Source: Clostridium algifaecis
Lineage (GTDB): Bacteria > Bacillota > Clostridia > Clostridiales > Clostridiaceae
Reading direction: 5' to 3'
Assembly (NCBI RefSeq): GCF_017874415.1
Contig: NZ_JAGGLM010000004.1
Location: 1 to 64,000 of the forward strand
Length of the DNA stretch: 64,000 nucleotides
Shown here in pieces: positions 40,576-41,823 of this stretch. The notes under the pieces were generated by a model. It was not told the DNA's origin, made no database searches, and was given only the letters and a program-made list of their open reading frames with translations. Both the position numbers and the translations under genes were made by a program. The stretch's first letter is position 1, and each line of letters starts with the position of its first letter.

Positions 40576-41823
40576 ATGAAAAAGAAAAAATTTGGTAGAA
40601 GAATAGTTCTAAAAACTATATGTGCTTTAGCAGGGACTATACTTACAGCGTCTTTAATTTCAGGATGCCATAGTATAGGATCAACTGCAAGTGATAGTAG
40701 TAATGATAAAGGTCCAATAAAAGTAGGTGTTTTACATTCCTTAAGTGGGACTATGGCAATAAGTGAAGTTTCAGTAAAAAATTCTGAAATAATGGCAATA
40801 AATGAGATAAATGCTAAAGGTGGAGTAATGGGGAGAAAATTACAACCAGTAATAGAAGATGGTGCATCAGACCCTACAACATTTGCTGAAAAAGCAAAAA
40901 AACTTCTACAGAAAGATAAAGTTGCAACTATATTTGGAGGATGAACATCTGCTAGTAGAAAAGCAATGCTGCCAATAGTAGAACAGAACAATGGCCTTTT
41001 ATGGTATCCAGTTCAATACGAAGGTATGGAGTCATCACCAAACATATTTTATATGGGATCTGCGCCAAATCAGCAGATTGTTCCGGCAGTAGATTGGCTT
41101 CTTAAAAATAAAGGAAAGAAAATGTTCCTTGTAGGTTCAGATTATGTATTTCCAAGGACAGCTAACAAAATAATAAAGGCTCAGCTTAAAGCTGAAGGTG
41201 GACAGGTTGTTGGAGAAGAGTATACTCCAATGGGATATACAGATTATAGTACTATTATAAATAAGATAAAGGCATCAAAACCTGATGAAATATTTAATAC
41301 ACTAAATGGAGACAGTAATGTTGCTTTTTTTAAACAACTTAAAAGTGCAGGGATAACAGCACAACAGATACCTGTTTTATCGGTAAGTATTGCAGAAGAA
41401 GAAGTAAAAGGGATAGGAGCTGACAATATGAAAGGTCAGTACGTATCTTGGAACTACTATCAAACTACAGATACTCAGCAGAATAAGAAATTTGTAGCAG
41501 ATTATAAAGCTAAATATGGTAATGATAAAGTAACAGATGATCCAATAGAAGCGGGATACAATGCAGTATATTTGTGGGCAAAGGCTGTAGAAAAAGCTAA
41601 ATCTACAGATGTAGATAAAGTAAAAACAGCCGCAAAGGGCTTGGAATTTGATGCTCCTGAAGGTAAAGTTAAGATAAATGGTGATAACCAACATTTATGG
41701 AAAATAGTAAGAATAGGTCAAGTACAGGATAATGGTTTAATAAATGAAGTTTGGAGTTCAGGAAAAACTATTTCACCAGATCCTTATCTTAAAACTTATA
41801 AATGGGCAAAGGGTTTAAATTAA
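40576..41823 (+). pseudogene. urtA: Urea ABC transporter substrate-binding protein, interrupted by TGA
   Basis: A 415-codon lipoprotein gene of normal length with an in-frame TGA at codon 123 (40942-40944). The N-terminus has twin arginines (GRRIVLK) and a lipobox (SLISGC). On both sides of the stop the family sequence is continuous: KVATIFGG before, then TSASRKAMLPIVEQ after. The family has tryptophan at this place (W-T-S-A-S-R-K), so TGG to TGA is a one-base change with no frameshift. The protein would bind urea for UrtBCDE. A sequencing error, a real loss, or read-through are all possible. No in-frame restart with a good ribosome binding site is near; ATG 40966 is weak. Confidence 0.85.

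What the first reader, a model, noticed from the sequence alone, without database searches (positions are those of the whole stretch)
40942..40944. In-frame TGA at a conserved tryptophan of UrtA in an otherwise intact urea-to-ammonia operon
Seen: codon 123 is TGA, and the frame continues for 292 further sense codons with perfect family character (TSASRK follows). Known: UrtA proteins have W-T-S-A-S-R-K here, so TGG to TGA, one base, explains it. Downstream urtBCDE and all urease genes keep intact frames and active sites. The standard code is in use: TGA ends motA elsewhere and tryptophans later in urtA are TGG. Inference: a fresh null mutation, a sequencing error, or UGA read-through. A loss in the receptor alone would make urease depend on diffusing urea.
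Basis: partly seen in the sequence, partly recalled or inferred. Interest (0 to 1): 0.75.

Follow-up and report, generated by a model that had tools for sequence, protein, structure and literature searches.

The report
Recent stop in urea receptor gene
In a low-GC bacterium, the gene for the outside receptor of a urea importer carries a single early stop codon inside an otherwise intact, apparently acquired urea-to-ammonia gene block; this is most likely an ordinary, recent loss of one gene.

Summary
TGA at 40942-40944 is codon 123 of a 415-codon urtA frame. The two pieces match UrtA profile positions 1-75 and 77-360, so only the stop column is missing. The 80 best relatives (of 574 found) all carry tryptophan there. 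urtBCDE and ureABCEFGD are open. Nothing suggests that UGA is read as sense: the only tRNA-Trp found has anticodon CCA and a paired stem, no UCA tRNA or selenocysteine machinery was found over cut-off, and release factor 2 is intact; the draft's tRNA set is incomplete. No second UrtA-like receptor was found. No further disabling change has built up, and a tree test shows no unusual UrtA rate, although a pairwise test shows mild excess divergence. So the stop is recent, or an assembly error that cannot be excluded without reads. New context: the urt-ure block is an insertion of about 10 kb between genes that are neighbours in 9 of 12 sister species; none of the 12 has a close UreC or UrtA. Best explanation: a recent, perhaps slightly leaky, receptor null in an acquired urea island. 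Ordinary kind of event; low interest.

The parts
40362..40389 (+). Promoter-like site, 12 of 12 matches to TTGACA-16-TATAAT, 186 bases between it and the urtA start codon
   Evidence: consensus scan; not evidence of function
40576..40941 (+). urtA, N-terminal piece (122 codons; lipoprotein-like signal with LISGC, read by eye)
   Evidence: TIGR03407 positions 1-75; sequence
40942..40944 (+). in-frame TGA, codon 123 of urtA
   Evidence: 80 of 80 relatives have an open Trp codon here
40945..41823 (+). urtA, C-terminal piece (292 codons) and TAA
   Evidence: TIGR03407 positions 77-360; closest solved chain 8tg1_A
41956..42873 (+). urtB, permease
   Evidence: TIGR03409, above cut-off
42888..43928 (+). 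urtC, permease
   Evidence: TIGR03408, above cut-off
43929..44687 (+). urtD, ATPase
   Evidence: TIGR03411, above cut-off
44671..45372 (+). urtE, ATPase
   Evidence: TIGR03410, above cut-off
45413..45715 (+). ureA, urease gamma
   Evidence: TIGR00193, above cut-off
45746..46126 (+). ureB, urease beta
   Evidence: TIGR00192, above cut-off
46116..47834 (+). ureC, urease alpha
   Evidence: TIGR01792, above cut-off; HEDWG and MVCHHL
47858..48307 (+). ureE
   Evidence: NF009754, above cut-off
48270..48986 (+). ureF
   Evidence: PF01730
48998..49615 (+). ureG
   Evidence: TIGR00101, above cut-off
49615..50394 (+). ureD
   Evidence: PF01774
40176..50381 (.). inserted block carrying urt and ure genes; ends approximate (alignments to sisters stop at 40174-40207, 40328 in G010, and resume at 50382 and 50395 in the two closest, 50454-50600 in others)
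   Evidence: nucleotide alignment to sister loci; flank genes 150-595 bases apart in 9 of 12 sister genomes

Best explanation
A recent single-base nonsense mutation has broken urtA, the lipid-anchored receptor of a UrtABCDE urea importer, in a urea island that this lineage seems to have acquired. Translation should stop after 122 residues, leaving an anchored stub without a complete binding fold. The rest of the operon is open, so urease should still be made. Without its receptor the importer should not work at low urea; urease would then depend on urea that diffuses in, enters through a channel, or is made inside the cell. A small amount of full-length receptor may still arise by natural UGA leak, since tryptophan is the residue usually inserted at UGA. 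Shown: the stop, the open remainder, no second receptor found in this assembly, ordinary decoding machinery, the insertion pattern. Inferred: loss of uptake, recency, leak.
For: The pieces abut the missing profile column. 80 of the 80 relatives kept have Trp there. Only one match to the C piece in the genome at E 1e-3. No further stop or frameshift in 1242 sites; a simple count gives a 95% upper bound of 0.016-0.046 neutral substitutions per site since loss, depending on the indel rate assumed. UrtA's terminal branch relative to UrtB-E is 0.58, rank 14 of 50 tips over 0.05, median 0.42: not an outlier. At columns fully invariant in the relatives the N piece departs at 0 of 29 and the C piece at 2 of 105 (V to I, A to S). 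Within 20 codons after the stop the only ATG, GTG or TTG in frame is an ATG 7 codons on, without a Shine-Dalgarno-like match 3-13 bases upstream. Decoding looks standard: tRNA-Trp CCA, no SelB or tRNA-Sec over cut-off, RF2 over cut-off with frameshift site, SPF and GGQ. Insertion.
Against: No reads and no second strain of the species were available, so an assembly error is not excluded. A pairwise identity test points the other way from the tree test: given UrtB-E identity, the window's UrtA is less like the relatives than expected (residual -0.029 for the C piece, 5 of 79 relatives lower; -0.042 for the N piece, 0 of 79 lower), and it departs at 7 of 153 near-invariant C-piece columns (3 of 80 relatives depart as often or more) and 2 of 39 N-piece columns (1 of 80). 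Relaxed constraint before or after the stop is possible. UGA leak could keep some receptor.
Confidence: 0.74

Rival explanations
1. The stop is a base-calling or assembly error and the real gene is intact.
For: A draft of 53 contigs; a single base change is enough; everything else in the frame is intact.
Against: Completeness 99.98 and contamination 0.64. In a 464-kb sample of the genome (window included) 29 same-frame ORF pairs passed a filter: 26 had a plausible restart; of the 3 without, two are followed by only 45 codons and the third (30842) by an ORF that starts at 30881, so I take them as gene ends. That filter is insensitive: it dropped urtA itself, I think because a 167-aa antisense ORF covers its N piece. 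Not a homopolymer site by eye.
Confidence: 0.15
2. The UGA is read through at a useful rate, by near-cognate tRNA-Trp, as a built-in brake on receptor level.
For: UGA is the leakiest stop and is mostly read as tryptophan in E. coli (PMC11126739, passages); 6% UGA read-through in one B. subtilis reporter is cited, and in-frame stops are argued to be widespread (PMC7918605, passages). The residue in relatives is tryptophan. tRNA-Trp has a G-U pair at the top of its anticodon stem, the pair that is lost in read-through-prone tRNA-Trp (PMC13092985, abstract and two sections).
Against: 0 of 80 relatives have a stop there. The stem is still paired, and positions 9 and 24 are A and G, not the read-through variants (my count on the sequence printed). 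RF2 is intact. UrtA shows no special constraint; if anything mild excess divergence.
Confidence: 0.08
3. The acquired urea island as a whole is being discarded, and urtA is simply the first gene hit. This overlaps with the best explanation and differs only in what comes next.
For: No UreC at E 1e-50 and no UrtA at E 1e-20 in 12 of 12 sister genomes, so dispensable in the genus; mild excess divergence of UrtA.
Against: The other urt and ure genes are open and match their families; the tree test shows no rate outlier for UrtA.
Confidence: 0.2

Closest known systems
UrtABCDE urea ABC importer (TIGR03407-TIGR03411)
   Same: Same five genes in order, followed by urease genes, as in many of the 24 fetched relatives whose positions were printed; closest solved chain is 8tg1_A.
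   Different: The receptor frame is cut at codon 123; the family model's cut-off of 492.75 bits is not reached by either piece alone (120.6 and 449.4).
Strain-level nonsense pseudogenes of bacteria
   Same: One in-frame stop in an otherwise well kept frame.
   Different: Nothing evident, except that the hit gene is one subunit of an otherwise intact, apparently acquired operon.
UGA to tryptophan reassignment (code 4) and read-through-prone tRNA-Trp (PMC13092985)
   Same: UGA at a tryptophan column.
   Different: UGA ends genes here (2 of 38 plus-strand ORFs that I picked), RF2 is intact, the tRNA-Trp found is CCA with a paired stem.

Membership tests
UrtA urea-binding receptor | Match to TIGR03407 over its length | tested here: inconclusive
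   The two pieces cover positions 1-75 and 77-360 of 361, but neither alone reaches the cut-off.
UrtA urea-binding receptor | Located at the head of urtBCDE | tested here: met
UrtA urea-binding receptor | One open frame that gives a full-length receptor | tested here: not met
   TGA at codon 123
Recent nonsense pseudogene | Stop absent from relatives, frame otherwise intact | tested here: met
   0 of 80 relatives have a stop there; no second disabling change
Recent nonsense pseudogene | Stop real in the organism's DNA | not testable with these tools
   no reads held
UGA as selenocysteine | SelB and tRNA-Sec in the genome | tested here: not met
   no match over cut-off: SelB best 179.6 against 242.25 bits, tRNA-Sec best 41.8 against 47 bits; a draft genome
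UGA as tryptophan by code change | tRNA with UCA anticodon, or loss of RF2 | tested here: not met
   61 tRNAs typed, none UCA (the set is incomplete, no tRNA-Ile typed); RF2 over cut-off
Programmed read-through | Stop conserved across relatives | tested here: not met
   0 of 80 relatives; strains of the same species not available
Programmed read-through | Full-length product made | not testable with these tools
   needs proteomics

The most novel reading that the evidence does not exclude
The UGA is kept as a leaky brake: near-cognate tRNA-Trp, whose anticodon stem has a weak top pair, inserts tryptophan at a low rate and sets a small dose of urea receptor, so that an acquired urea island behind a consensus promoter is throttled at its entry step without losing urease.
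Probability: 0.04. Interest if true: 0.6.

Novelty: new member of a known kind. Interest (0 to 1): 0.18.

Why it matters
If real, it is a clean natural case of a urea importer without its receptor beside a complete urease, useful for asking how much urease depends on active uptake. It is also a caution for pathway annotation: presence of urtABCDE-ureABCEFGD genes would be scored as complete although the receptor is cut. The kind of event, one nonsense allele in one draft genome, is common (recalled).

Tried and rejected
Selenocysteine, code change and tRNA suppression were tested and not supported. RF2 first looked suspicious because the search counted two TAA inside its match; reading the locus showed the ordinary programmed +1 frameshift start. 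A codon-usage scan for interrupted genes was too noisy to use. A list of same-frame neighbours of at least 80 codons gave 58 pairs including urtA; I did not classify all 58. The stricter filter dropped urtA itself. A UT-type urea channel search (PF03253) found nothing, but no control genome rang either, so it says nothing. The MIP-family search found one gene; whether it passes urea is not known. Papers, seen as listings only: 'Clostridium tyrobutyricum' + urease, a guess at the organism, 30 papers, 15 listed, nothing useful; urtA + Clostridium + urease + urea ABC transporter, 2 papers, not on this question by title; urtA + premature stop codon, 27 papers, 12 listed, none on urea transport by title, 149 papers, 8 listed, nothing useful.

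Full report
What is there. The frame 40576-41823 encodes a lipoprotein-like substrate-binding protein with TGA at codon 123. Searched apart, the 122-residue piece matches UrtA model TIGR03407 at positions 1-75 and the 292-residue piece at 77-360; Pfam PF13433 gives 1-74 and 77-361. The stop stands where one column is missing, with no indel. The downstream genes urtB, urtC, urtD, urtE, ureA, ureB, ureC, ureE, ureF, ureG and ureD are open and match their families.

Relatives. In 80 of these 80 the codon aligned to the stop is an open tryptophan codon; one frame (L035) starts at a contig edge. The 80 were chosen by similarity to the C piece, so strongly decayed copies would not be among them.

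Is UGA read as sense here? The search of the own genome gave 61 tRNA matches (150 of 237 candidates scored), and ARAGORN typed 61 tRNAs in the stretches taken: one tRNA-Trp, anticodon CCA, none UCA. No tRNA-Ile was among them, so the draft's tRNA set is incomplete. The tRNA-Trp anticodon stem has five pairs, the top one G-U, and by my count on the printed sequence positions 9 and 24 are A and G; a recent survey links read-through with stems that lack the top pair and cites changes at 9 and 24 (PMC13092985; abstract and two sections read). No SelB and no tRNA-Sec passed its cut-off. RF2 passes its cut-off, keeps SPF and GGQ, and starts with CTT TGA C after AAGGAG (that these are the RF2 motifs and the UGA-sensing frameshift site is recalled). 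Of 38 plus-strand ORFs that I picked by hand from the 66, 27 end in TAA, 9 in TAG and 2 in TGA. I take UGA to be a stop here. Natural leak remains: in E. coli UGA is the leakiest stop and is mostly read as tryptophan (PMC11126739, passages), and 6% is cited for one B. subtilis reporter (PMC7918605, passages).

How old is it? In the 1242 sites outside the stop codon there is no second disabling change. About 5.3% of all single-base changes would make a stop; with indels at 0, 5 or 10% of substitutions the 95% bound on neutral divergence since loss is 0.046, 0.024 or 0.016 per site. On a tree fixed from UrtB-E (window and 79 relatives), the window's UrtA tip is 0.254 against 0.437 for UrtB-E, ratio 0.58, rank 14 of the 50 tips longer than 0.05, median 0.42. 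Against this, pairwise identities show UrtA somewhat less conserved than expected: the N piece lies below 79 of 79 relatives and the C piece below 74 of 79. The relatives include many Bacilli that are close to each other (titles), which makes this comparison unequal. I read the two together as a recent stop, perhaps after some relaxation.

Where the operon comes from. UreC (E 1e-50) is in 1 of 13 genomes of the genus, the window's own, and so is a close UrtA (E 1e-20). The genes on either side, a metallo-hydrolase on the minus strand at 39542-40174 and a CwlD-like amidase on the plus strand at 50479-52107, match 150-595 bases apart on one contig in 9 of 12 sister genomes. Of the other three, G008 has them on different contigs, and G006 and G012 lack an amidase match at E 1e-40; there the hydrolase aligns close to the stretch before ileS instead. 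Alignments stop at 40174-40207 (40328 in G010) and resume at 50382 and 50395 in the two closest sisters, later in others. GC is 32.5% in the operon and 29.5-29.6% in the flanks. An insertion in this lineage is simpler than repeated loss, though this was not tested on a species tree.

What it most likely does. The stub ends before most of the binding fold, and the only in-frame start codon within 20 codons after the stop has no Shine-Dalgarno-like match in range. The genome holds no second match to the C piece at E 1e-3, so no related receptor is at hand to serve UrtBC. Urea can enter bacteria by passive diffusion as well as by uptake systems such as UrtABCDE, and 23 cyanobacterial strains with urease genes but no urt genes are reported (PMC6737895, passages); one MIP-family channel gene is present here (its substrate is unknown). 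So urease here should work on urea at high concentration or on urea made inside. This step is inferred.

Verdict. A recent nonsense allele in one genome is ordinary; an assembly error remains possible at about 15% (my judgement, no reads). The most interesting by-product is the clean insertion pattern of the urea block.

Noticed in passing
40176-50381: The whole urt-ure block looks like an insertion between two genes that are neighbours in 9 of 12 sister species; integrase genes or repeats at its ends were not searched for.
   Followed up: partly
L222:1446-2553 (G000:C4, prfB): RF2 gene with the usual programmed +1 frameshift at an in-frame TGA (L222:1524-1526).
   Followed up: yes
40362-40389: Perfect 12 of 12 sigma-70-type promoter match ahead of urtA, with 186 bases between it and the start codon, of unknown role (19 sites found in the region against 11.4 in shuffles).
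   Followed up: no
46269-46566 (-): Rfam match to the 5'ureB antisense RNA (RF02514, 103.1 bits) opposite ureC; may only reflect coding conservation.
   Followed up: no
52190-55587: T-box leader (RF00230) and an isoleucyl-tRNA synthetase whose best NCBIfam matches are the MupA and MupB models, far below their cut-offs, while it passes the general IleS model.
   Followed up: no
35825-35921 (-): TPP riboswitch ahead of a ThiT-type thiamine transporter gene (35123-35773, -).
   Followed up: no
57650-61750: 1366-aa protein with AAA_11/AAA_12 helicase parts and a C-terminal MTES_1575 nuclease domain (Pfam), possibly a defence gene.
   Followed up: no
G000: No tRNA-Ile among the 61 tRNAs typed, probably because rRNA operons are not assembled; the draft's tRNA set is incomplete.
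   Followed up: no
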